From NCBI GenBank assembly GCA_002731275.1, contig PCBK01000090.1:1-54315 (forward strand): a stretch of DNA of 54,315 nucleotides. The letters are read 5' to 3'. This DNA comes from Deltaproteobacteria bacterium (GTDB lineage Bacteria > Myxococcota_C > UBA6777). Positions 42,584 to 54,315 of this stretch are shown piece by piece. The notes under the pieces were generated by a model that was given only the letters and a program-made list of their open reading frames with translations, was not told the origin of the DNA and did no database searches. A program made the translations under genes and the position numbers. Every line of letters begins with the position of its first letter. Within the stretch, counting starts at the first letter, position 1.

Positions 42584-43567
42584 ATGACAACGAATAAAGT
42601 AAACGCCCCCAAACGAGCACTCAGACTCATGCAGTTGATGACCATTTTGAAGGTTCAGCCTGGCATTACTCCCAGCAATCTTTACGATCAACTTGGCATC
42701 AAAAAAAGTCAGTTTAGCAAAGATAAACAATCTCTTGAAGATATGGGGTTTACGTTCCGGTACGATCGAAGTCAAAAACGTTACGAAATCACAAAAGAGC
42801 CCTTCTTTCCATCGGCAGGGTTGAGTTTTCTTGAGTTGTTCTCACTGATTAGCGCAATCAAGCAAATGAGCGTTAAGGGAGATCATGCACTTTCTGCTTT
42901 TTCGATCGAAGCGATCCGCAAGATGATCGCAGCAACGCAAGATGAACGCACAAGAGAACTTCTTCGCTATGAACTTGAAGACACAACCTTAAAAAAGGGT
43001 TTTGGCTGTCACCCTGATGTCTTAAATTGTCTTTTTTCCGCAACAAAAGAGAGAAAGCGTGTCAAGGTCTTGTACAAGGCTCCAAACGACGAACCCAGAG
43101 AGTTTTTGTTTGACCCCTATGTTGTATTCTTTCGCAAACGTGCACTTTATGTCGATGGATATCGTCCTGATCCTATTGAATACAAAGGGTTCAAAACCCT
43201 TCGGCTTAACAGGATCGAGAGCATCACACAACTACCCTATGGATTCCCTCAGCAAGGTAACTACAACTTTCATGAACGTTGGGAACATGTGTACTATCTC
43301 TTCGGCACAAACACACCACCCACTACGACACGCTTTCGTTTTTCAGCAAAAGCAACCCCTTACATCAAAGAGATACAATGGCACAACAGCCAGTCCATCC
43401 AAAACGAACGTGATGGAGGATGTATCCTGACACTTCATGTCGCTGAACCAAAAGAAGCTGTTCGTGAGTTCATGGAATGGGGAGCTGAGATGGAGGTGCT
43501 TGAGCCAGAAGAACTGCGAATGTGGTATCACGAAGAGCTCCAAAAAATGCTCGCTTTGCATACATAA
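42584..43567 (+). CDS. WYL-domain transcriptional regulator
   Basis: 327 residues. An N-terminal winged helix (RALRLMQLMTILKVQPGITPSNLYDQLGIKKSQFSKDKQSLEDMG, about 10-55) is followed by a WYL domain (about 145-220; KRVKVLYKAPNDEPREFLFDPYVVFFRKRALYVDGY) and a WCX-like C-terminus with AVREFMEWGAEMEVLEP. Family members bind nucleic-acid-like ligands and often control CRISPR-Cas or other defence genes. The gene lies directly upstream of the cas operon, reads in the same direction and is separated from it by a 245-nt region with its own strong promoter. It is the likely regulator of that promoter. Downstream hairpins lie at 43569-43581 and 43620-43633. Confidence 0.85.
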   Translation: MTTNKVNAPKRALRLMQLMTILKVQPGITPSNLYDQLGIKKSQFSKDKQSLEDMGFTFRYDRSQKRYEITKEPFFPSAGLSFLELFSLISAIKQMSVKGDHALSAFSIEAIRKMIAATQDERTRELLRYELEDTTLKKGFGCHPDVLNCLFSATKERKRVKVLYKAPNDEPREFLFDPYVVFFRKRALYVDGYRPDPIEYKGFKTLRLNRIESITQLPYGFPQQGNYNFHERWEHVYYLFGTNTPPTTTRFRFSAKATPYIKEIQWHNSQSIQNERDGGCILTLHVAEPKEAVREFMEWGAEMEVLEPEELRMWYHEELQKMLALHT

Positions 43568-43812: not shown

Positions 43813-44052
43813 ATGAGAAAGCACCCTGAAGAACCAAACATTTACAAAGAGATCCTCGAAAGTTTCATTCAAGAACGCCGCGAAAAAGAACAAATGCGTT
43901 CGTTGAGAGAGGAAGTTGTCTACGAGATGCTTGCCTTGATGATCGATTCAAAGGCTTTTGAGACACACGAACAAAACCAAACAGAACAATTTCTTTTTAC
44001 CCTCATTTCAAATGGAGAGAGTCACAATGAGTATGCACAAGCCATTGACTGA
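43813..44052 (+). CDS. Small acidic helical protein at the head of the cas operon
   Basis: 79 residues from ATG 43813. The 3' end overlaps the large-subunit gene (start 44027) by 26 nt in another frame, so translational coupling is likely. The chain is rich in Glu/Arg/Lys and predicted helical (EEPNIYKEILESFIQERREKEQMRSLREEVVYEMLALMID), with no hydrophobic segment, signal peptide or known motif. I recognise no family. Candidates are a new accessory Cas protein, a regulator or an antitoxin-like protein; there is no evidence for any. Its position directly after the cas promoter, and the overlap, argue that it is a real gene. Confidence 0.5.
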   Translation: MRKHPEEPNIYKEILESFIQERREKEQMRSLREEVVYEMLALMIDSKAFETHEQNQTEQFLFTLISNGESHNEYAQAID

Positions 44053-46426
44053 TTCTGTCACACCAGAGAAAAAACGCTTCCTTAAACAACTCTGTGCCTC
44101 TCTCGTCTTTCAGAAGGCTACCCCCTCAAGTGCCCCAAAGGCGTATGAGTATCTTTCTTACAAGTTCCAACATAACCCCACCTATAGAGCTTGGCTGACA
44201 TCTATTTGCCCCCCAAAAATGCTACGTACCCTTCGTCGATACAAAGGAAGTGACGAAATTCCTGTTTGCCCTGAAACTCCGAAAGGTACATCAATTCGTT
44301 TGTATCGAGCTCCTTCCCCGACAGAGCAACAGGCAAAAATCGCAGCGGATAATGTTGCAGAACAATGGAGCATGTTTCTTGCCGAACGAAACATCCCAAC
44401 GATGCTCGCAACACCAACGCTCTGTGTTGTTTTTGTACCCGAAGGGATGGTTTTTGATGTGGATGAGCTATGGTCTACCTTTCTACGCGAAGATCTCCTC
44501 TCTTTAGGATCTCTGTGTCGTTCTCTGCTCCCTTTACTCAATCTCTCTAAACTCTCCGCACGTGGTTTTTCTGCTCCTGAGATTCTTTTGGTGTCCGGGG
44601 GAATGAGAACGTTTATGTGCGCTTGGTTCTTGCGGACCTATGACTTGGTAAAAGAGCGACTCACCAACCGTCAACACAAGCTTGGGAGTGAAGATCTTTC
44701 TGAGAAGGAGAGAGAAAAACTCCAGGCACTTCAAGACAAAGAAATCGAAAAGTACAACACGCACTTTCAAAGGCGTTGGAAAGCTTTACGCAAAGAGGTT
44801 GACAAGCACCAAGACAAACTCAACAAACAACAAAATAAAATCGACAAGCTCAAAAAACCTTCTGGTAAAAAGTACGAAAAGCTGCTGAAAGAACTCCGAA
44901 GGCTTCAACAGCAGGAACCCTTTCCAAGCTCTGCTTGGTCGAGGTTAAACACTCTCGCGCAAGAGGAACAATTCAACCCCTTTTGCGTCATCGATAAAGA
45001 ACTCAGAGCCAACACAGCGCAATACAAAGAGATCGTACAAACCTCGAAGAAATTTCACAGAAAAGCAGCGGACCAACTGAATCACCCAAGGGGAGACATT
45101 TTCGCGTCCATGTTGGTGGAGTTGCTCAAAGCAGCTAACACCCCCGATGAGGCTTGCTTGCAGACGATTCCATCCATGTTTTCGACACAACCTTTTGCTC
45201 CACCACCTCGTAAAGCTGGAGATTCCCCCAAACAAATCTGCTTTGTATGTGGAGCTTACATGGAAAAAGATGAGCCTTCCTTTGAGCTTCGTCGGATGAT
45301 TTTTACATCTCCTGAACAACGACTACAAGGAAGCCCAAACCCCAAAAAACCCAAGTGTTGTATCTCTTGTGTTACATACGCTTACGTATGTGGCGCAAAA
45401 CCAACGGAAGATACCACGATTATCAAAATCATCCCCAAGAACCAACAAACACAACATTCTGAAGGAGATACTCAGCAGATAGGGCGTATCCTGATCAACA
45501 AGGAGCTTAACATTCAATCAGGTCCTTACCTTCTGTTGGGTTGTAAGGAGTGGTTGTCTGCGAAGGGAGGGTTTAAGCCCGTCTCGGCCTCGGTTGGTGC
45601 CCTTGCCTATGCATATTATCGTATCGCCCGAGACGTACATCCCGCAGCCCTCGAACACATGCAGTTCTTTCTTGTGGAAAGAGGACAAGAGATCCCCCTC
45701 TCCAACACTCGACTGTTCTGGCTTTATGCGTTGCTTCAGGCTTCTGGCCTCTCCATCGAACAACAAGGAAAGCTCTCACTGCCAGTGAGTCAAATCATTC
45801 GTGTTCTTCTTGCTGACGAGTATATCGAATCCCAATACATCGCCGCTAAACACACAACATTACCCACAAGCTTTCCTATGAAAATGGAGGCTTTTTGGCA
45901 CTCCCTTTCCATCATCTTTCAAAAGGAGAAAGATATGTCCACACAAGCAGAAAACAAGCTCTCTGAGATTGAGCTTATTGCTGGTATGACGGGATTACTC
46001 ATCCCGTTTATCAACCTCCTCAAAAGAAAACTCAGCGATAAGGGCAAAAAAGAGAAAGAGATTCATCGCGAGATGGCGAAACTCATTGAAAACTGCAATG
46101 ATCCGTTCCTGTGGAATTACAATTTCGCCTCGCACAAAGAGATCGTTTTCAAAAGCGCAAAGTTGTTCAAAAATTCGGATAGCTACTTCATCTATGAACA
46201 AACCAAACGATTACTCTCCAACCTTCCGCAAGGAATTGACACTGCAGAGAGAGAAGAAGTCAACAAAGAAGGTGCCTCTTTGCAAATCAACTTTGACGAC
46301 GTCCTCGCTTCTTACAACATGTATCTCTCTGATAACCTGAACAGACAACAACGCAAAGAGCTCACAAACAAACTCAAACTCTCTCTCTACAGTCGCTTTC
46401 CATCCGTCTTGAGCCGTTACAAATAG
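44027..46426 (+). CDS. CRISPR large subunit, Csc3/Cas10d- or Cas8-like, without HD domain
   Basis: 799 residues from ATG 44027, chosen over the longer frame because GGAGAG lies 7-8 nt upstream. A coiled, Lys/Glu-rich segment occupies about 215-300. A zinc-finger-like pair follows: CFVCG (about 405) and CCISC (about 444). No N-terminal HD motif and no GGDD are visible. Position (first, before Csc2 and Csc1-like genes), length and the Cys pairs point to the type I-D large subunit or a Cas8 derived from it. It should hold the PAM-recognising end of Cascade. The C-terminal helical part (640-799) seems to be expressed separately as well (see 45935). Naming is uncertain; csc3-like by context. Confidence 0.7.
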   Translation: MSMHKPLTDSVTPEKKRFLKQLCASLVFQKATPSSAPKAYEYLSYKFQHNPTYRAWLTSICPPKMLRTLRRYKGSDEIPVCPETPKGTSIRLYRAPSPTEQQAKIAADNVAEQWSMFLAERNIPTMLATPTLCVVFVPEGMVFDVDELWSTFLREDLLSLGSLCRSLLPLLNLSKLSARGFSAPEILLVSGGMRTFMCAWFLRTYDLVKERLTNRQHKLGSEDLSEKEREKLQALQDKEIEKYNTHFQRRWKALRKEVDKHQDKLNKQQNKIDKLKKPSGKKYEKLLKELRRLQQQEPFPSSAWSRLNTLAQEEQFNPFCVIDKELRANTAQYKEIVQTSKKFHRKAADQLNHPRGDIFASMLVELLKAANTPDEACLQTIPSMFSTQPFAPPPRKAGDSPKQICFVCGAYMEKDEPSFELRRMIFTSPEQRLQGSPNPKKPKCCISCVTYAYVCGAKPTEDTTIIKIIPKNQQTQHSEGDTQQIGRILINKELNIQSGPYLLLGCKEWLSAKGGFKPVSASVGALAYAYYRIARDVHPAALEHMQFFLVERGQEIPLSNTRLFWLYALLQASGLSIEQQGKLSLPVSQIIRVLLADEYIESQYIAAKHTTLPTSFPMKMEAFWHSLSIIFQKEKDMSTQAENKLSEIELIAGMTGLLIPFINLLKRKLSDKGKKEKEIHREMAKLIENCNDPFLWNYNFASHKEIVFKSAKLFKNSDSYFIYEQTKRLLSNLPQGIDTAEREEVNKEGASLQINFDDVLASYNMYLSDNLNRQQRKELTNKLKLSLYSRFPSVLSRYK
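45923..45937 (+). promoter_or_regulatory. Internal ribosome binding site and start inside the large-subunit gene
   Basis: AAGGAG (45923-45928), 6 nt, then ATG 45935, in frame with the surrounding gene (codon 637 of the 799). It is at least as good as the site of any other gene in the operon and lies exactly before the all-helical C-terminal region. Confidence 0.75.
45935..46426 (+). CDS. Predicted Cas11-like small subunit from an internal start
   Basis: 163 residues from the internal ATG, sharing frame and stop with the large-subunit gene. The product would be all-helical (STQAENKLSEIELIAGMTGLLIPFIN at its start), of the size usual for Cas11 small subunits. It is established for several type I systems, including type I-D, that the small subunit is made by internal translation of the large-subunit gene. 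Here that is inferred from the ribosome site and the lack of a separate small-subunit gene. If it is correct, several copies would line the Cascade belly alongside the Cas7 filament. Confidence 0.65.
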   Translation: MSTQAENKLSEIELIAGMTGLLIPFINLLKRKLSDKGKKEKEIHREMAKLIENCNDPFLWNYNFASHKEIVFKSAKLFKNSDSYFIYEQTKRLLSNLPQGIDTAEREEVNKEGASLQINFDDVLASYNMYLSDNLNRQQRKELTNKLKLSLYSRFPSVLSRYK

Positions 46427-46448: not shown

Positions 46449-47324
46449 ATGTCCACTGGATTGAATACATCAGAAGAAAAACGCGAACACCTCGACATCT
46501 ATGCCATCTTTGAAGGGCCTCAAGAACTCTACTTTGGTGATCGAGTTCAGATCAATGTCAACCTTGTCGAGCAAATCACACTCGAATCCGCAGATGGCAC
46601 ACAGATCAAAAAGTGTTACATCTCTCCAACAAAGCGACGTGGTGTTGAGCGGCGAAGCTTGATTTGGGCACCGACCAACACTGGAGCGTTATTGGGGGAT
46701 GTGAGAGAGTGTGGTATTCCCAAAACATGTGTAAAACAAGATTGTCCGATTTGTGCGATCTATGGGGCGATGGATGCAGGAAATTCGACTCTGATTGGAC
46801 GACTCACACATGGCGGAGGTGTTGCGATCCAAGCTCTTCCCCCTGAAGAGAAGCAGCGTGCAATGCACCCTGCGCTTATCGCAAGAAAGAATGAAGAGTC
46901 CCCCACCCCATTCCGCCGAGAGTACAATGAACCTGGTCTGTTGTACCCTAATTCCAACCACTTTTTGAGTGTAACAGAGAAAGAGTTCACCGCCGGAGCG
47001 TATGCATTTCTCGATTCGTTGGCTCGTGTTGGTGCGGGGAATCCCAAGGGTGTCAAACTCTTCGAGAAAGACAACCAGCCGATGCTCATCGTCGATCGAT
47101 ACCTGAGTCCAATGGGAAAACGTCCGATTCTCTCACCTCACATCTCAGATACAAAACAAGCCATCGAAACCTTCGAGCGGTTAGCAAGAACCGTTCATGG
47201 GAAGCTCTACAAGGAGAACACCATCAAGATGGAGAGATTCGAGCGCAAGATCGGTGATGATGCGCTTGTCTATCTCCAAACGTGTGCAGATCAATTCGTT
47301 CAGGACCATCTTCAGGGCTCATGA
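46449..47324 (+). CDS. csc2: Csc2-type Cas7 backbone protein
   Basis: 291 residues behind an AAAGGA site. Characteristic Csc2 features: RRSLIWAPTNTGALLG, then a Cys cluster CGIPKTCVKQDCPICAIYG (Cys89, 94, 99, 102) that probably binds zinc, followed by a thumb-like loop and ARVGAGNPKGVKL. Several copies should coat the crRNA spacer. Csc2 with a CPxC-IYG motif is the marker of type I-D; this fixes the subtype relation better than any other gene here. The stop overlaps the next start as ATGA. Confidence 0.8.
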   Translation: MSTGLNTSEEKREHLDIYAIFEGPQELYFGDRVQINVNLVEQITLESADGTQIKKCYISPTKRRGVERRSLIWAPTNTGALLGDVRECGIPKTCVKQDCPICAIYGAMDAGNSTLIGRLTHGGGVAIQALPPEEKQRAMHPALIARKNEESPTPFRREYNEPGLLYPNSNHFLSVTEKEFTAGAYAFLDSLARVGAGNPKGVKLFEKDNQPMLIVDRYLSPMGKRPILSPHISDTKQAIETFERLARTVHGKLYKENTIKMERFERKIGDDALVYLQTCADQFVQDHLQGS

Positions 47325-48145
47325 TGTACTGCGTAAAAATAGAGCTACAACCAACAAGCGCAATGACCTTTCGGGTCATTCCAGGCTCCAACTTGGATAT
47401 CGCAACATATCCGTTTTTGCCTCCAACAACGATGTCTGGATACCTCCGAAGAATCGCTATGATGGCTGCAGGAGAGGAGCTTCCAAAGGCAACAGTCGAG
47501 ACGAAAGAAGAGGGAGCGCACTACTACGCGCTTCCCCCTCATCTGCTCACGACAGGCGCGATCCCTATTGGGATGAAGGGTATACACAAGACGCACAGAA
47601 AAGGCCCATCCAACTTCAAACACTTTGGGTTCTCTCAAATTTACCGCAAGAAGATAGACAAGCAGGAAAACATCCAACTGCACACTTGGGAGTATTTCTT
47701 TTGTGAGTCGATGGTGGGTTTTGTGCTCGCAGAATCGAGCGAACACCTTGTGGGTTTCAAAGACTGTGAGGGCTGGGGATGTAAGATCGGAAAGGAAGGC
47801 TATGCTGTCGTTCATTCTGTAAGTGAACCTATTGCGCTCCAACAGGTCCGTTGTGCTGCGACACCTTCCACCCTCCTCTCTCCTGAATCTATCGAGCTAG
47901 AAGATCTGTACCAGCCGATCGAGTTTTATGGTTTGTTCAATTATCAATGGAGTTCGAAGTCTTCGAATATGCCGGGGGGACCAGCAAGCACGCAGCCCTC
48001 ATCGATTGAAGGGTATATTCCGCTCTCCGTCGGGAATCCGGTGTCAGGTGCAACATTCACGCTTGATTACCTCCATGATGGAGAAGATATCTTCATCGCT
48101 TTGTCCTGGATTCAAGCGTTGCAGCGTGGCCTTCCAAAGAAGTAG
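47321..48145 (+). CDS. Cas5/Csc1-like subunit
   Basis: 274 residues from ATG 47321, overlapping the csc2 stop (ATGA); the open frame upstream to 47282 is only the csc2 overlap. RAMP-like features: beta-rich, with a sequence near the N-terminus, TYPFLPPTTMSGYLRRIA, typical of Cas5 proteins, and a Gly/Ser-rich loop towards the C-terminus. Its position between csc2 and cas3 and the size suit Csc1, the type I-D Cas5, which holds the crRNA 5' handle. Cas5 sequences diverge greatly, so the assignment leans on position. Next comes cas3, 14 nt later. Confidence 0.65.
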   Translation: MMYCVKIELQPTSAMTFRVIPGSNLDIATYPFLPPTTMSGYLRRIAMMAAGEELPKATVETKEEGAHYYALPPHLLTTGAIPIGMKGIHKTHRKGPSNFKHFGFSQIYRKKIDKQENIQLHTWEYFFCESMVGFVLAESSEHLVGFKDCEGWGCKIGKEGYAVVHSVSEPIALQQVRCAATPSTLLSPESIELEDLYQPIEFYGLFNYQWSSKSSNMPGGPASTQPSSIEGYIPLSVGNPVSGATFTLDYLHDGEDIFIALSWIQALQRGLPKK

Positions 48146-48159
48146 ACAGGAGCATGATC

Positions 48160-50970
48160 ATGCAACAAACAAATACAAAACGTCAGGTCGGTCGTGTCTT
48201 TTTTCGAACGAAACATACTGATGGTGTCGAGATTCCATACGAAATGGACGTGATCTTACTCGATAGTCATGTCGAGAATGTACACCAACTCGCGAGCTGT
48301 TGGCGTTCATCAAGCAGGCTTCGAGAAGAAGATGGACGAAGTTACCTGTGGGGAGGAAGTCGAGACAATGTTCTCTCCGCAGCAAGAAGACACGATGATG
48401 GAAAACCTGCGAAGTTCAAACTGACTTACAACAACAGAGGTGGTAAAGGTTTTGGCTACTCCTTTGCTGGCCACCGCTTCATCGTGCCGCCCAAAGAGCC
48501 TTATGAAGATGCGCTGATCCGAGGACACCATGATTTCTCTGTCGAAGATATCACGGAGGCCGCATACAGGCTTCAAGAGACACTTAAGGAGACAGATTGT
48601 TCGGACTTACAAGGCCTTGCTGCATTGTCTCCTCAGGCGCTCATGCAACGATACAGAGAAGACCTGTACATTCTTGAGATGTGTGATCAAATCGAAGCTT
48701 CTATAGAGTCTATGTTGCTCGATCATTCGGATCCGAGAAACTTCATGGACTTTTCTCTTTTCCCAAAAGAAGAACCCAAACATTCTCTCTCCGACACCAA
48801 AAACCTCCAACAAATGGAACTATTCTCCCAAGGTAACATGCCAGAAGATGTGCAACATCTCATCGTGGAGCCAGCTTTTTGGGACGGAGAACCACTCATT
48901 GTAGAGGTGAAGTTTGTTACGATAGAGATCCCTCAAGAAGTACAAGACAACCTTTTGAAAGAAATTGGAAAAGGCGAAGAAGAAAAGGCTGCGAGGTTTC
49001 TCAAAAAGCACTTGATGGAGCAACTCGAACAAGCACCGCTACAACACAAGCGTGCATACCTGCACAAGCCGCAAACGTTTTCTCATAAAGAATGCTCGAA
49101 AAATATCAAGGATATCTTGGGTTTTGAGAAGCTCAACCACATGCAAAAAGAGGTTTATGAGAGCGTTGTAGCGAAAGATGATCTCTCCCTTTTACTCCGT
49201 GCACCAACAGGGAGCGGAAAAACGGAGGCTGTGTTGTGGCCTTGCCTTGTCGAACAACGACGTCTGATCCTAGCACTCCCAACCCGCTCGTTGCTTGATG
49301 ACCATGCAGAGAGAATACACGCCATACTCACCCGTGCGGCACTCACGAACCAGCGCACGTACACAATGATCATCGACACTGGAACACAAACGAGGCAACA
49401 GCTTTTCACGCCAGAAGGCCCAAAAGAAGGACATCGACGCCACCTCTATCGCGCCGATGTGATCCTTACAACACTCGATAAATTGATTTACAGGTTTTTT
49501 GGATACCAAGATAAAACCAAGTCTATGATCTTCCCCCACAGGATCGCGCAATCGAATACCATACTCTGTTTTGATGAAGCGCATAGTTATGAAGAAGTTG
49601 CTTGGACCAACTTTCGTAAGTTGATTCGTGCGCTCTATCAGGCAGGACAAGATCTCCTCTTGATGACCGCGACGATGCCTCCCCATCTTCTCGAAGAGTT
49701 CTGCGACCTCGATATCCTCGATTACTGCGAGGGAGAGAAAGGAGCAGTGCTTCTTGAAGATATCAAAACGTATTGTTCACAACGAGGTGAGTGGCACCCA
49801 CAAAAGAAGCTATTTTGGCAAGATGTTCCGTTTGTACAGGATGAAACGCTCACCTCTTTTGAGCAAGAGCAGGCATACGAAGCGACCCTCGCAATGAATC
49901 TTGTGAAACAAACCAAAGAAGCACTCTTTGCACAAAAGCAACGCATCATTGTCGTTACAAATACTGTGGACACAGCGATCGATGTATATAAGTTGCTTCA
50001 AACACACATCACCACCTCGAAGTCCTCCCACGAGTTATTGTTGTATCACGGTAGACTGGCTTCACTTCGATGGGACGAAGGAAAACGCTCTTTAAGCCCT
50101 CGTGCGGAACGTTACAAAAAACTAAAGGGTTTGGATCAACGCCAGGAGGCGTACGTTCTTGTCACAACCCATGCGATTGAGGTGGGTTGTGATCTCGATG
50201 CAGATAAGTTGATCACATCCCTCTGTACTCCTGACGCCCTTATTCAACGTGCAGGTCGATGTAATCGAAAGAACAACACTCAAGATGCCAGTGTCTTGGT
50301 TGTTGGTTCGCACATTCCATCCTACCTGAACAATATGGAAGAACCCCAAAGGCACATGTACCTTACATATCTTCGAGAACACACAGGCTCACAGCTTGAG
50401 GCGAATGCCTTGATGCCCTTTTTGGACAAGGAAGAGGCAGTAGAAGATCCTCGTGTTGTCGAAGGTTTTGATATGCTTTATGAGTATGTATATCGTGGGG
50501 ATATCTTGTACCAACCATTACACAAGAGAGGGATGCTCGCGACAAGAAGTTGGGAGCCTACAGTCACATTCCGATTTTGTGTAGGGGGACGAAGAGATGA
50601 AGTTACCATACCGCTGACGAGATTGCGTTTGCGAAAAGATGAAGAACCTCGTGTCGATCTGTGTGTTCTGGAGAAGGTCTACGATCCAGGACAAGGAAAG
50701 TACGTCGAGCAACCACTCACTCGGGGGAATGCTTACGCTAAAAGAGAGATTATCGTGGAGGTGGTGGATACATGCATGCTTGCGGGAGCGACCCTGGACA
50801 ATTTTGATGAGACTGGATGCTATGATGAAGTTCTTGGGTTGTACGAATTACCACGATTATTCAGGATTTGGAAACAACGCTCCAGCCTGAAGATGTTGGC
50901 GATGTATGTGTCCGAAGAAGGGAAAAAGATCATCCTCGATTTTTTGGCCCCTTACGAATTGGAGGAGTAA
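48160..50970 (+). CDS. cas3: Cas3 helicase with N-terminal HD nuclease
   Basis: 936 residues from ATG 48160 (AGGAG with 7-nt spacing; ATG 48154 is too close to it). The N-terminal ~250 residues contain HD-nuclease motifs: His in DSHVENVHQLA, ARRHDDGK (His-Asp at about 78-79) and RGHHDFS (about 122-125). The helicase part has LRAPTGSGKTEA (about 347-354), DEAH (about 471), LLMTATMP, and QRAGRCNRK (about 695). It should unwind and degrade target DNA after Cascade recruitment. In canonical type I-D the HD sits on the large subunit and the Cas3 lacks it; here it is the reverse. The gene is 3 nt from cas6. Confidence 0.87.
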   Translation: MQQTNTKRQVGRVFFRTKHTDGVEIPYEMDVILLDSHVENVHQLASCWRSSSRLREEDGRSYLWGGSRDNVLSAARRHDDGKPAKFKLTYNNRGGKGFGYSFAGHRFIVPPKEPYEDALIRGHHDFSVEDITEAAYRLQETLKETDCSDLQGLAALSPQALMQRYREDLYILEMCDQIEASIESMLLDHSDPRNFMDFSLFPKEEPKHSLSDTKNLQQMELFSQGNMPEDVQHLIVEPAFWDGEPLIVEVKFVTIEIPQEVQDNLLKEIGKGEEEKAARFLKKHLMEQLEQAPLQHKRAYLHKPQTFSHKECSKNIKDILGFEKLNHMQKEVYESVVAKDDLSLLLRAPTGSGKTEAVLWPCLVEQRRLILALPTRSLLDDHAERIHAILTRAALTNQRTYTMIIDTGTQTRQQLFTPEGPKEGHRRHLYRADVILTTLDKLIYRFFGYQDKTKSMIFPHRIAQSNTILCFDEAHSYEEVAWTNFRKLIRALYQAGQDLLLMTATMPPHLLEEFCDLDILDYCEGEKGAVLLEDIKTYCSQRGEWHPQKKLFWQDVPFVQDETLTSFEQEQAYEATLAMNLVKQTKEALFAQKQRIIVVTNTVDTAIDVYKLLQTHITTSKSSHELLLYHGRLASLRWDEGKRSLSPRAERYKKLKGLDQRQEAYVLVTTHAIEVGCDLDADKLITSLCTPDALIQRAGRCNRKNNTQDASVLVVGSHIPSYLNNMEEPQRHMYLTYLREHTGSQLEANALMPFLDKEEAVEDPRVVEGFDMLYEYVYRGDILYQPLHKRGMLATRSWEPTVTFRFCVGGRRDEVTIPLTRLRLRKDEEPRVDLCVLEKVYDPGQGKYVEQPLTRGNAYAKREIIVEVVDTCMLAGATLDNFDETGCYDEVLGLYELPRLFRIWKQRSSLKMLAMYVSEEGKKIILDFLAPYELEE

Positions 50971-50972
50971 AT

Positions 50973-51806
50973 ATGCCAGCCGCTTTTATCGTCGAGTGTG
51001 TCTCGGCAAATGAGAAGGGGCTTGATCCCCAAAAGCTACGTATGAGACAGTTGCAAGGTGCATTTTTGGAGGCGGTACGTCGTGTTTCACCAGAACAAGC
51101 CCACCAACTTCACGAAGGGAGTCAGGAGAAGCCCTATACTCTCGGTTTGATGGAGCGTATGTCTCAGAAAAGAGGATTCATCAAACGCTTTCAGTTTCGT
51201 GTGACGTTATTGGATGATGCATTCTTTCCGTTGGTGTTGCAATTGCAGGCGACAACACATGATGAACCTCTGATGCTCGGAAAGCAGCCCTTTAAGATAC
51301 AAAGCATTCATACAGGAACAGGTCACTACGCAAAGTGGACAGGATTTTCGCCGTGGTCGAAGCTCTTATCTGACGCTTCAACTCAGCATATCGTTCATTT
51401 GAGGTTGGACACCCCTGTCAGCTTTCGTCAGAGCCAGAAGGAGAAAGGAACGCGGCTTGAGATGCCGCTCCCTCTCCCAGAACTTGTATTGGGAAGTGCG
51501 TTGCGTAAGTGGCAATTGTGGTCGGGCGAAGTGCTTGATGAGGAGCTTCGAAAGTATCTTTCTTCGGCCATTGAGATTACTTGGCCATTTTCTCTAGAGA
51601 GCCATGAAGTGGAGTTTCATATAAGAGGCACAACAAGGCGAGTTGTTGGCTGTACAGGGCAAATAACGTACAGGCTTCATCACAAACAAATACCAAAAAC
51701 AGTCCTTCAGCAGATGAACGCGCTGGCAAGTAGTCTTTTTTACACAGGAGCAGGTGTCAGGACAGCGTTTGGCATGGGGCGTCTTTGTCAGATAGAGCAA
51801 CCATAG
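50973..51806 (+). CDS. cas6: Cas6 crRNA endoribonuclease
   Basis: 277 residues from ATG 50973, 2 nt after the cas3 stop, with GGAGG at 50961-50965 as an ideal ribosome site. The chain shows two RAMP-like halves and ends with the Gly-rich loop YTGAGVRTAFGMGRL typical of Cas6. Active-site His is not certain: candidates lie in the first half (HQLHEGS, THDEP, HTGTGHY). It should cut each repeat after the CTCC/GGAG stem, giving an 8-nt 5' handle ATTAAAAC. The 25-nt gap to the cas1 remnant has no room for a missing N-terminus. Confidence 0.82.
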   Translation: MPAAFIVECVSANEKGLDPQKLRMRQLQGAFLEAVRRVSPEQAHQLHEGSQEKPYTLGLMERMSQKRGFIKRFQFRVTLLDDAFFPLVLQLQATTHDEPLMLGKQPFKIQSIHTGTGHYAKWTGFSPWSKLLSDASTQHIVHLRLDTPVSFRQSQKEKGTRLEMPLPLPELVLGSALRKWQLWSGEVLDEELRKYLSSAIEITWPFSLESHEVEFHIRGTTRRVVGCTGQITYRLHHKQIPKTVLQQMNALASSLFYTGAGVRTAFGMGRLCQIEQP

Positions 51807-51831
51807 AGCACCATACTTGCATTGTTTCTAA

Positions 51832-52170
51832 ATGAAAAAATCGATGGCATTTTTGACTGAACAAGGTCGGTATCTTGGACGATTGGAACCGGCATTTTCG
51901 AAAAACTGTTTTTTGAGAGAGGCGCAGTACAAGAAGTCTTTTTCCGAAGAGAAAAGTCTTGAGGCAGCTCGTTGTATCATCGGAGGTAAGCTCGCCAATC
52001 AAAGAACGTATCTGGTTCGAGGAAACCGAACTCGTCGCACTGAACGTCTTGGACATGCGATAAAAAAACTCAAAATGATGGAGCGAAAGCTTTGCACGGT
52101 GGACAACATCCCTTCTCTTTTGGGATTTGAGGGAACTGCGAGTTCATTTTACTTAAGTGAGTCACTATGA
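51832..52170 (+). pseudogene. cas1: Cas1 remnant, central fragment only
   Basis: 112 residues (ATG 51832, no ribosome site visible). It aligns to the middle of Cas1: MAFLTEQGRYLGRL, then FLREAQY, ARCIIGGKLANQRTYLVRGN, and LLGFEGTASSFYL, the last containing the first catalytic Glu of the family. Cas1 is normally about 300-340 residues. Here the first ~60 residues and the last ~170, which hold the catalytic His and second acidic residue, are missing. The stop overlaps cas2 as ATGA. This is either a degraded gene or, less likely, a maintained mini-protein. Spacer acquisition by this copy should be impossible. No Cas4 is found in the locus. Confidence 0.8.
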
Positions 52171-52445
52171 TGTTTTTTGTGATTTCTTACGACGTGAGCG
52201 ATGACAAGCGCAGAACGCAGATCCACAAAGCGCTTAAATCATTTGGTTTGTGGGTGCAGTATAGTTTGTTTGAGTGCGAGCTGAGCAAATCTGATTATGT
52301 CAGGCTTCGAGAGAGGCTGGAAGCGTTGAGCAAACCGGAGGAGGATAACCTTCGCTTCTATAAACTTTGTCAGGTGTGTCAGGAGACTGTAGAGAGAATA
52401 GGTGAAGATCCTCGCCTTGATGAGTTTGGCATCTTCATAGAATGA
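52167..52445 (+). CDS. cas2: Cas2 adaptation protein
   Basis: 92 residues with the ferredoxin-like Cas2 fold: MMFFVISYDVSDDKRRTQI (YDVSDD contains the conserved Asp), GLWVQYSLFECELS and a final FGIFIE strand. The size is typical and the frame is intact. It overlaps the cas1 remnant by ATGA. In functional systems Cas2 bridges two Cas1 dimers; with Cas1 reduced to a fragment, Cas2 is unlikely to support adaptation unless another Cas1 is supplied in trans. Confidence 0.88.
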   Translation: MMFFVISYDVSDDKRRTQIHKALKSFGLWVQYSLFECELSKSDYVRLRERLEALSKPEEDNLRFYKLCQVCQETVERIGEDPRLDEFGIFIE

Positions 52446-52806
52446 CAGGAAACAGCGAGTTTGTTTGCGCTTGTTGTCGAAACATGCCATACTTTGATGC
52501 ACCACAAAGAATGCTTTTTGAGAAAAGAATAATCTGCTTTTTGGGTTTCGGGGATCGAAGCTCAAAAAGGTCGTTTTTGTTGCGTCGGATCATTTTCTGT
52601 AACACTATCAGAGAGATGATGTCGAACAATGGTTTCTTTTGTGTTTTGGGATGCTCGAATCTTTTTAAGTGTTTGAATGGTTTGAGTTTTGTTGAAGTGT
52701 GAATGTTTTCACTCTTAACAAGTAGCTTGCATAAGGGGCTTCCGAATCTGGTTGCTCGAAAAAGGGTAGACAAGTCCTCGATACTAGAGTATCTTTTTTC
52801 CGGGCT
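52446..52806 (+). promoter_or_regulatory. CRISPR leader
   Basis: 361 nt, AT-rich and without a convincing gene, between cas2 and the first repeat. T/G-rich tracts (for example TTGTGTTTTGGG, GTTTTGTTGAAG) suit a leader. TTGAAG at about 52692 may be a -35 box, but no good -10 is seen. A 14-bp palindrome with a T-run abuts the first repeat (52780-52799). The leader lies on the 5' side of the transcribed array, as the repeat orientation also indicates. Confidence 0.65.
52780..52799 (+). terminator. Palindrome plus T-run at the leader-repeat junction
   Basis: GATACTAGAGTATC (52780-52793) is a palindrome with GATACT/AGTATC arms, followed by TTTTTT (52794-52799), 7 nt before the first repeat. It looks like a weak intrinsic terminator of a cas transcript or a protein-binding site for leader-proximal integration. 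The short stem makes termination uncertain. Confidence 0.4.
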
Positions 52807-54315
52807 CTTCCCACCCCAACGTCGCTCCAACGGAGATTAAAACAACGACGGAATCAAAACACTCGCACTCTGTAAATTCTTCCCACCCCAACGTCGCTCC
52901 AACGGAGATTAAAACATCGGTGCCATCAACTTTGACGCTGCCCCTATGGTCTTCCCACCCCAACGTCGCTCCAACGGAGATTAAAACCATTTTGCACCGC
53001 TCTCCTCTGCTACCTTTTTGATTCTTCCCACCCCAACGTCGCTCCAACGGAGATTAAAACCGCAAAAAACACGAGTCCCTGTTTTTGCTTTCCCCGGACT
53101 TCCCACCCCAACGTCGCTCCAACGGAGATTAAAACAAGCAGATTGCAAGCGTTCCAACCCAAGAAGGGAGAGTGTACTTCCCACCCCAACGTCGCTCCAA
53201 CGGAGATTAAAACATATCACGACCTCGCCAAAAAATCAGGAACGACCGCTCTTCCCACCCCAACGTCGCTCCAACGGAGATTAAAACGATCCTTACGTGG
53301 AAGATCCTGAGAACTTCTGCTTGCTTCCCACCCCAACGTCGCTCCAACGGAGATTAAAACACCTCCCTCACACCCTCACATCAAAAAAAATGCATCTTCC
53401 CACCCAACGTCGCTCCAACGGAGATTAAAACCATCGTGTAGGCGATGGAAGTTGGAAGCACTTCAAGCTTCCCACCCCAACGTCGCTCCAACGGAGATTA
53501 AAACCCCAAACATACGAAACCGGTTCCAGGCCACCGGCGCACTTCCCACCCCAACGTCGCTCCAACGGAGATTAAAACTTGATCGGAGAGAGGGGACAAT
53601 CTCTTACGATGGCCGCAATCTTCCCACCCCAACGTCGCTCCAACGGAGATTAAAACAAAGAACTCGGCGGAATACCCGTAAAGTTAACCCTATCCTTCCC
53701 ACCCCAACGTCGCTCCAACGGAGATTAAAACACACGCCAGAGTACGCGCTGTTGACGCCACACGGCTTCCCACCCCAACGTCGCTCCAACGGAGATTAAA
53801 ACAAGACGTTCATCGTCAATCACAATAAATCGTTCGCTTCCCACCCCAACGTCGCTCCAACGGAGATTAAAACTACACGCCAGATGGCAATTACGCTGCC
53901 AAAATCGAAGAGCTTCCCACCCCAACGTCGCTCCAACGGAGATTAAAACCGAGAGGAATTCATCATACACAACCGCCCCTGAACTTCCCACCCCAACGTC
54001 GCTCCAACGGAGATTAAAACTGTGAGACGCGAGTGAAGCGCTCGGATCGTTCGATCCTTCCCACCCCAACGTCGCTCCAACGGAGATTAAAACACACACT
54101 GTGCACACAACCTTACTCTCGGCTCCCCAAGCTTCCCACCCCAACGTCGCTCCAACGGAGATTAAAACGAGCAACTGCTTTGCAAGCTCTTCCCCAAACC
54201 AGGGGCTTCCCACCCCAACGTCGCTCCAACGGAGATTAAAACGCCCAAAAGTCTCAGGTCGTTGATGCTCTGGAACTTCCCACCCCAACGTCGCTCCAAC
54301 GGAGATTAAAACTCC
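52807..54315 (+). CRISPR. CRISPR array, 21 repeats in window, continues past the end
   Basis: Repeats of 37 nt start CTTCCCACCCC and end GGAGATTAAAAC. First 52807-52843, last 54276-54312, 21 in all, with 20 complete spacers of 33-41 nt, all different. The last 3 nt belong to the next spacer, so the array runs past the window. Repeat 9 (53396-53431) lacks one C and is 36 nt. The repeat contains a CTCC-AAC-GGAG stem directly before ATTAAAAC, so Cas6 cutting below the stem would leave an 8-nt 5' handle. This fixes the plus strand as transcribed, in the same direction as the cas genes. The array repeats are almost identical, so it is probably not ancient debris. Confidence 0.98.

What the first reader, a model, noticed from the sequence alone, without database searches (positions are those of the whole stretch)
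51832..52170. Cas1 reduced to its central third between intact cas6 and cas2
The fragment covers about residues 60-170 of a normal Cas1 and ends just after the first catalytic Glu (GFEGTAS). Both ends are lost, yet an open frame with an ATGA overlap to cas2 remains, and cas4 is absent. The array downstream looks well kept, so either the loss is recent or adaptation comes from a Cas1 elsewhere. A maintained mini-Cas1 with a non-catalytic role is the exciting alternative.
Basis: partly seen in the sequence, partly recalled or inferred. Interest (0 to 1): 0.75.

Follow-up and report, generated by a model that had tools for sequence, protein, structure and literature searches.

The report
Broken cas1 beside a working-looking CRISPR
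This bacterium's CRISPR immune locus has lost both ends of the gene (cas1) needed to record new infections and only its middle third remains, so it can probably still use its 83 stored memories but not add new ones; this is a known kind of gene decay, not a new kind of protein.

Summary
ORF 51832-52170 encodes only residues ~64-170 of Cas1 (PF01867 E=4e-22). It lies between an intact cas6 and an intact cas2, and there is no cas4. Relatives with the same effector cassette keep cas6-cas4-cas1(333 aa)-cas2. So ~0.75-0.9 kb (cas4 plus the cas1 5' end) and ~0.5-0.6 kb (the cas1 3' end) have been lost here.

The best reading is a young pseudogene, left by two deletions, in an otherwise intact type I-B-like locus. 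It keeps all 14 well-conserved positions and shows no significant rate excess, but lacks two of three catalytic residues, has no evident ribosome-binding site, and no similar mini-Cas1 turned up in 386 other genomes.

No other Cas1 exists in the 10.75-Mb assembly, although two type III effector loci do. The array (84 repeats, 74 perfect) is therefore probably frozen but usable. A Cas1 in the missing ~5% of the genome cannot be excluded: one contig ends 0.47 kb past a second cas6. Assembly error is untested (no reads). Truncated cas1 remnants are published for Bacteroides fragilis and Thermus thermophilus. The "maintained mini-Cas1" idea has no positive support.

The parts
43958..46426 (+). large effector subunit, Cas8b-like (the true start may be an internal ATG)
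   Evidence: PADLOC PDLC01527 Cas8b E=9e-121; the start is as listed mechanically
46449..47324 (+). cas7 (Cas7b-like)
   Evidence: PADLOC PDLC01388 E=6e-112; 56-60% identity to relatives
47282..48145 (+). cas5 (Cas5b-like; the start is probably an internal ATG, since this ORF start overlaps cas7)
   Evidence: PADLOC PDLC01389 E=4e-78
48154..50970 (+). cas3 (helicase with Cas3-like C-terminal domain; HD motif by eye only)
   Evidence: TIGR01587 E=2e-46; PF22590 and DEAD
50973..51806 (+). cas6, intact, preceded by a strong ribosome-binding site (GGAGGAG)
   Evidence: PADLOC Cas6d E=2e-25; PF10040 and PF19308; upstream sequence
51807..51831 (+). 5' deletion junction: 25 bp here, where relatives hold cas4 and about 60 codons of cas1
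   Evidence: comparison with L021, L025, L034, L026
51832..52170 (+). cas1 remnant, about residues 64-170 of a 333-aa Cas1; probable pseudogene
52150..52170 (+). 3' deletion junction: homology to Cas1 ends at about ..SSFYL; about 500-610 bp (some 165 codons) that relatives have before cas2 are missing
   Evidence: alignments; distances in relatives
52167..52445 (+). cas2, intact (92 aa)
   Evidence: PF09827 E=1.4e-24; PADLOC Cas2d E=3e-35
52446..52806 (+). presumed leader between cas2 and the array
   Evidence: position next to the intact end of the array; decayed repeats at the far end
52807..54312 (+). CRISPR array, leader-proximal part (21 repeats of 37 bp, one with a 1-bp deletion); continues on contig C100 after an exact 96-bp overlap, 84 repeats in all

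Best explanation
The ORF is a recently formed cas1 pseudogene. Two deletions removed (i) cas4 and the first ~60 codons of cas1 and (ii) the last ~165 codons of cas1, leaving cas6 and cas2 untouched. The remnant cannot integrate spacers: most of the N-terminal beta domain and the segments with the catalytic His and Asp are gone. The locus most likely keeps pre-crRNA processing (Cas6) and type I-B-like interference (Cas8/7/5/3) with its 83 existing spacers, and has stopped acquiring new ones. Shown: both losses relative to relatives, intact neighbouring genes, and no other Cas1 in the assembly. Inferred: loss of adaptation, its recency, and continued interference.
For: Synteny: relatives (L021, L025, L026, L034) have cas6-cas4-cas1-cas2; L021, L025 and L034 hold about 780-930 bp and 510-620 bp where the window has 38 and 12 bp. 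The only Cas1 match in the own genome is this fragment (PF01867; cognate profile at E<=10); the only good Cas2 is the window's; there is no cognate Cas4. Recency: 14 of 14 well-conserved Cas1 columns are retained and the leave-one-out profile score is 100.5 bits, against 66-120 for 13 intact Cas1 segments. ML distance ratio own/others is 1.45 (90% bootstrap 1.01-1.86), against 1.14-1.41 for cas2, cas7, cas5, cas6 and cas8. 5.9% of single-base changes would make a stop, yet the frame is open. No evident ribosome-binding site precedes either possible ATG, unlike cas6. AlphaFold2 gives pLDDT below 50 for residues 1-26, the orphaned beta part. Precedents exist: B. fragilis I-B cas1 252 of 1014 bp with acquisition judged crippled (PMC5704556), and T. 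thermophilus truncated cas1 pieces upstream of arrays that do not acquire spacers (PMC7515739).
Against: The absence of any disabling change also fits a fragment kept by selection. Two separate deletions that both spare cas6 and cas2 and leave an ATGA overlap are somewhat neat. No reads or sister strains were available, so neither the deletions nor their age is independently verified.
Confidence: 0.78

Rival explanations
1. The remnant is dead, but adaptation of this array continues in trans with a Cas1(-Cas4) encoded in the unassembled ~5% of the genome or on a lost plasmid.
For: The assembly is 94.65% complete in 200 contigs. C146 ends 0.47 kb past a second cas6. Leader-proximal repeats 1-8 are perfect. 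Two type III loci exist without adaptation genes nearby. In T. thermophilus arrays with cas1 pieces coexist with an active cas1 elsewhere in the genome.
Against: No Cas1 by two profiles, no second convincing Cas2, no cognate Cas4. The sequence between the C146 cas6 and the contig end has no array or recognisable cas gene.
Confidence: 0.12
2. A maintained mini-Cas1 with a non-catalytic role, for example a regulator of Cas2 or a DNA-binding helical domain.
For: Open frame, intact conserved residues and profile score, ATGA overlap with cas2, helices in residues 39-111 mostly predicted with pLDDT 80-91.
Against: No similar short Cas1 ORF among the matches in 386 genomes: all lie in frames of 243 aa or more, except one marginal, stop-containing hit in G044. 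No evident ribosome-binding site. Cuts lie inside both structural domains. Everything seen is equally expected of a recent deletion.
Confidence: 0.04
3. An assembly artefact or strain-mixture consensus: the real chromosome has a full cas4-cas1.
For: A draft assembly in 200 contigs with 5.5% contamination; reads not available.
Against: Artefacts rarely delete two separate stretches with clean junctions inside one contig while sparing both neighbours (inference). No unplaced Cas1 or cognate Cas4 pieces exist on any other contig.
Confidence: 0.06

Closest known systems
Truncated type I-B cas1 in Bacteroides fragilis (PMC5704556)
   Same: cas1 cut to 252 of 1014 bp between retained cas genes next to an array; cas4 missing; acquisition judged crippled
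   Different: There most effector genes (cas3, cas7, cas8b) are lost too, cas1 lost one end only, and a single deletion is proposed; here the effector set is complete and cas1 has lost both ends
Truncated cas1 pieces upstream of leaders in Thermus thermophilus HB27c (PMC7515739)
   Same: Rudimentary cas1 pieces sit just upstream of arrays that do not acquire spacers; the authors leave open whether they encode proteins or act in cis
   Different: Type III arrays, some pieces are 3' regions, and another active cas1 is present in that genome
Intact cas6-cas4-cas1-cas2 cassettes with the same effector type (L021 Oscillatoriaceae, L025 Tectomicrobia, L034 Binatia, L026 Cyanothece)
   Same: Same gene order; 36-46% identity to the remnant over 102 residues
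   Different: Cas1 is 333-334 aa and cas4 is present; the L026 cas1 reading is split between two frames
Cas1 of the type I-C adaptation complex (PDB 8d3l)
   Same: Best-matching solved structure (residues 66-173, E=8e-9)
   Different: Full length, 343 aa

Membership tests
Cas1 (PF01867), by descent | significant match to the family profile | tested here: met
   E=4.3e-22, 79 bits over a 22.3-bit cut-off, positions 59-162 of 283
Cas1, as a working integrase | three catalytic residues (Glu, His, Asp) | tested here: not met
   only the first Glu (GFEG) is present; the segments that carry the others are deleted
Cas1, as a working integrase | complete N-terminal beta domain and C-terminal alpha domain | tested here: not met
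   about 60 N-terminal and 165 C-terminal residues missing; residues 1-26 not confidently folded
Cas1, as a working integrase | integration of spacers with Cas2 | not testable with these tools
   needs a bench assay
Maintained mini-Cas1 (hypothetical) | the short form recurs in other lineages | tested here: not met
   no convincing short Cas1 ORF among the matches in 386 other genomes; none in the related cassettes whose cas6-cas2 region was complete
Maintained mini-Cas1 (hypothetical) | purifying selection on the short form | tested here: inconclusive
   sequence well kept, but no close relative for dN/dS; recent loss predicts the same
cas1 pseudogene | truncation relative to syntenic homologues with loss of essential parts | tested here: met
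cas1 pseudogene | relaxed evolution of what remains | tested here: inconclusive
   distance ratio 1.45 (1.01-1.86) overlaps neighbouring genes 1.14-1.41
Type I-B CRISPR-Cas | Cas8b, Cas7b, Cas5b, Cas3 | tested here: met
   PADLOC I-B models for Cas8b, Cas7b, Cas5b; generic Cas3 core, with Cas3d as best PADLOC Cas3 model; no NCBIfam or Pfam match for the first three

The most novel reading that the evidence does not exclude
The 112-residue helical piece of Cas1 is translated in step with cas2 and kept as a non-catalytic partner of Cas2 or of the leader, for example blocking or licensing integration, in a genome whose three effector systems lack any full Cas1.
Probability: 0.04. Interest if true: 0.75.

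Novelty: new member of a known kind. Interest (0 to 1): 0.22.

Why it matters
It is a clear case of a CRISPR locus caught shortly after losing adaptation: effector genes, Cas2 and an 83-spacer array are intact while cas4 is gone and cas1 is cut at both ends. Two type III effector loci in the same genome have no nearby adaptation genes, so in this assembly immunity rests on stored spacers alone. That makes it useful for asking how long interference outlives adaptation, but it is not a new mechanism.

Tried and rejected
Sister strains: the held set has only four other genomes of the phylum; none has this cassette, so strain comparison and dN/dS were impossible. Survey of truncated Cas1 by PF01867 in 386 genomes: the output was cut before weak matches, so the fragment was used as query. 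An apparent extension of the Pfam match 12 bp upstream through a TAA: not convincing by eye, and the cognate profile starts at 51841; not used. An apparent extension into cas2 through three TGA: chance. The 23 leader-proximal spacers against phages: no match. Type III loci as donors of Cas1: no Cas1 there, no array in the stretches read. Deletion by direct repeats: cannot be tested without the ancestral sequence. AlphaFold2 on the fragment has little diagnostic power, since homologous pieces tend to take the parent's fold.

Full report
What is there. The window is contig C79 of a 10.75-Mb draft genome in 200 contigs, 94.65% complete. Its end holds cas8-cas7-cas5-cas3-cas6-[cas1 piece]-cas2-array, all on the + strand. 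PADLOC models type the effector genes as Cas8b, Cas7b and Cas5b (I-B), with a Cas6d-like Cas6 and a Cas2d-like Cas2; the best Cas3 model is Cas3d. Cas3, Cas6 and Cas2 are also recognised by NCBIfam and Pfam.

The cas1 piece. ORF 51832-52170 (112 aa) matches Cas1 over positions 59-162 of 283 in PF01867 (E=4.3e-22) and residues 66-173 of the type I-C Cas1 in PDB 8d3l. Alignment with the 333-aa Cas1 of relatives places it at about residues 64-170. It ends just after the Glu of GFEG. By established knowledge of Cas1, the other catalytic residues (His and Asp) lie further on and are missing, as is most of the N-terminal beta domain.

What was lost. A search with Cas7 found 15 loci with the same kind of cassette. 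In Oscillatoriaceae (L021), Tectomicrobia (L025), Binatia (L034) and Cyanothece (L026) the order is cas6-cas4-cas1-cas2. Poribacteria loci whose cas6-cas2 region is complete carry a cas4-cas1 fusion instead; L032 shows neither cas1 nor cas2 after cas6, and L022, L023, L024 and L027 end or diverge before that point. From the end of cas6 to the start of the matched segment, L021, L025 and L034 hold about 780-930 bp and the window 38 bp; from the end of the segment to cas2 they hold about 510-620 bp and the window 12 bp. So two stretches are gone: cas4 with the 5' part of cas1, and the 3' part of cas1.

Is there another Cas1? PF01867 finds only this fragment in the whole assembly, and a profile of cognate Cas1 proteins finds nothing else credible at E<=10 (next hit E=1.8). 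The only good Cas2 is the window's. A cognate Cas4 profile finds nothing convincing; a weak PF01930 match on C25 lies in a 399-aa frame (E=8e-6). The genome does carry two more effector loci: a III-B set on C122 (Cmr1, Cas10, Cmr3-6, with a NucC nuclease and a SAVED-TIR protein nearby) and a III-D-like set on C49 (Cas10, Csx10-like, Cas7-like, with a CARF-HEPN protein). No array was seen in the stretches read. A second cas6 lies on C146, 0.47 kb from the contig end, with no array or recognisable cas gene in that remainder. A cas1 in the gap there, or elsewhere in the missing ~5%, cannot be excluded.

How old is the damage? The remnant keeps all 14 columns that are at least 80% conserved among 13 intact Cas1 proteins. 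Its leave-one-out profile score, 100.5 bits, ranks fifth of fourteen. The ML distance ratio (own to others over others to others, four taxa) is 1.45 with a 90% bootstrap range of 1.01-1.86, against 1.14-1.41 for five intact neighbours, so any acceleration is not significant. 5.9% of single-base changes in the ORF would create a stop; by a simple Poisson estimate (inference) an unconstrained ORF would have a 5% chance of staying open at about 0.15 substitutions per site. All this fits a recent loss. It would also fit selection, and no close relative is available to separate the two.

Against a maintained mini-Cas1. In 386 other genomes the Cas1 matches to this fragment lie in frames of 243 aa or more, apart from one marginal stop-containing hit. 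No ribosome-binding site is evident before either possible ATG, while cas6 has GGAGGAG. The cuts fall inside both domains; AlphaFold2 gives pLDDT below 50 for residues 1-26 and confident helices after that.

The array. C79 and C100 share an exact 96-bp end, so they form one array of 84 repeats and 83 spacers. 74 repeats are perfect, and changes cluster in the last eight, as in an array whose new end is at the leader by cas2. Nothing cas-like was seen in the part of C100 read beyond the far end, judging by ORF translations alone.

Known precedents. Bacteroides fragilis has a I-B locus with cas1 cut to 252 of 1014 bp and cas4 missing; the authors judge acquisition crippled (PMC5704556). Thermus thermophilus HB27c has truncated cas1 pieces upstream of each of four arrays that do not acquire spacers; whether they encode anything was left open (PMC7515739).

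Verdict. This is a young cas1 pseudogene in a locus that probably still interferes but no longer adapts. What is new is the example: both ends of cas1 lost while the effector set, cas2 and a long array remain.

Noticed in passing
window 54220-54315 and contig C100 of the same genome (L049): The contig break lies inside the CRISPR array; the two ends overlap exactly by 96 bp, so C79 and C100 are neighbours.
   Followed up: yes
L061 (C122:61000-80500): A III-B (Cmr) locus with a NucC nuclease downstream and a SAVED-TIR protein upstream, with no cas1, cas2 or array in the stretch read. A 978-aa ORF between Cmr6 and NucC has no PADLOC match and contains long internal repeats.
   Followed up: partly
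L062 (C49:72000-89487): A III-D-like locus (Cas10, Csx10-like, large Cas7-like proteins of 641 and 843 aa, CARF-HEPN protein) without cas1, cas2 or array.
   Followed up: partly
L065 1-1522 (C146): A solitary second cas6 (351 aa) 0.47 kb from a contig end, with several phage-like ORFs a few kb away (judged by eye).
   Followed up: partly
L026 8905-10262 (Cyanothece sp. BG0011): cas1 and cas2 each read in two frames: either sequencing error or another decayed adaptation module with this cassette.
   Followed up: no
L024 12602-16879: The same I-B-like cassette is followed directly by type III-like genes (apparent Cas10 and RAMP proteins, judged by eye) instead of cas6-cas4-cas1-cas2.
   Followed up: no
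window 42584-43567: A WYL-domain regulator (WYL plus WCX) just upstream of the cas operon, a possible regulator of it.
   Followed up: partly
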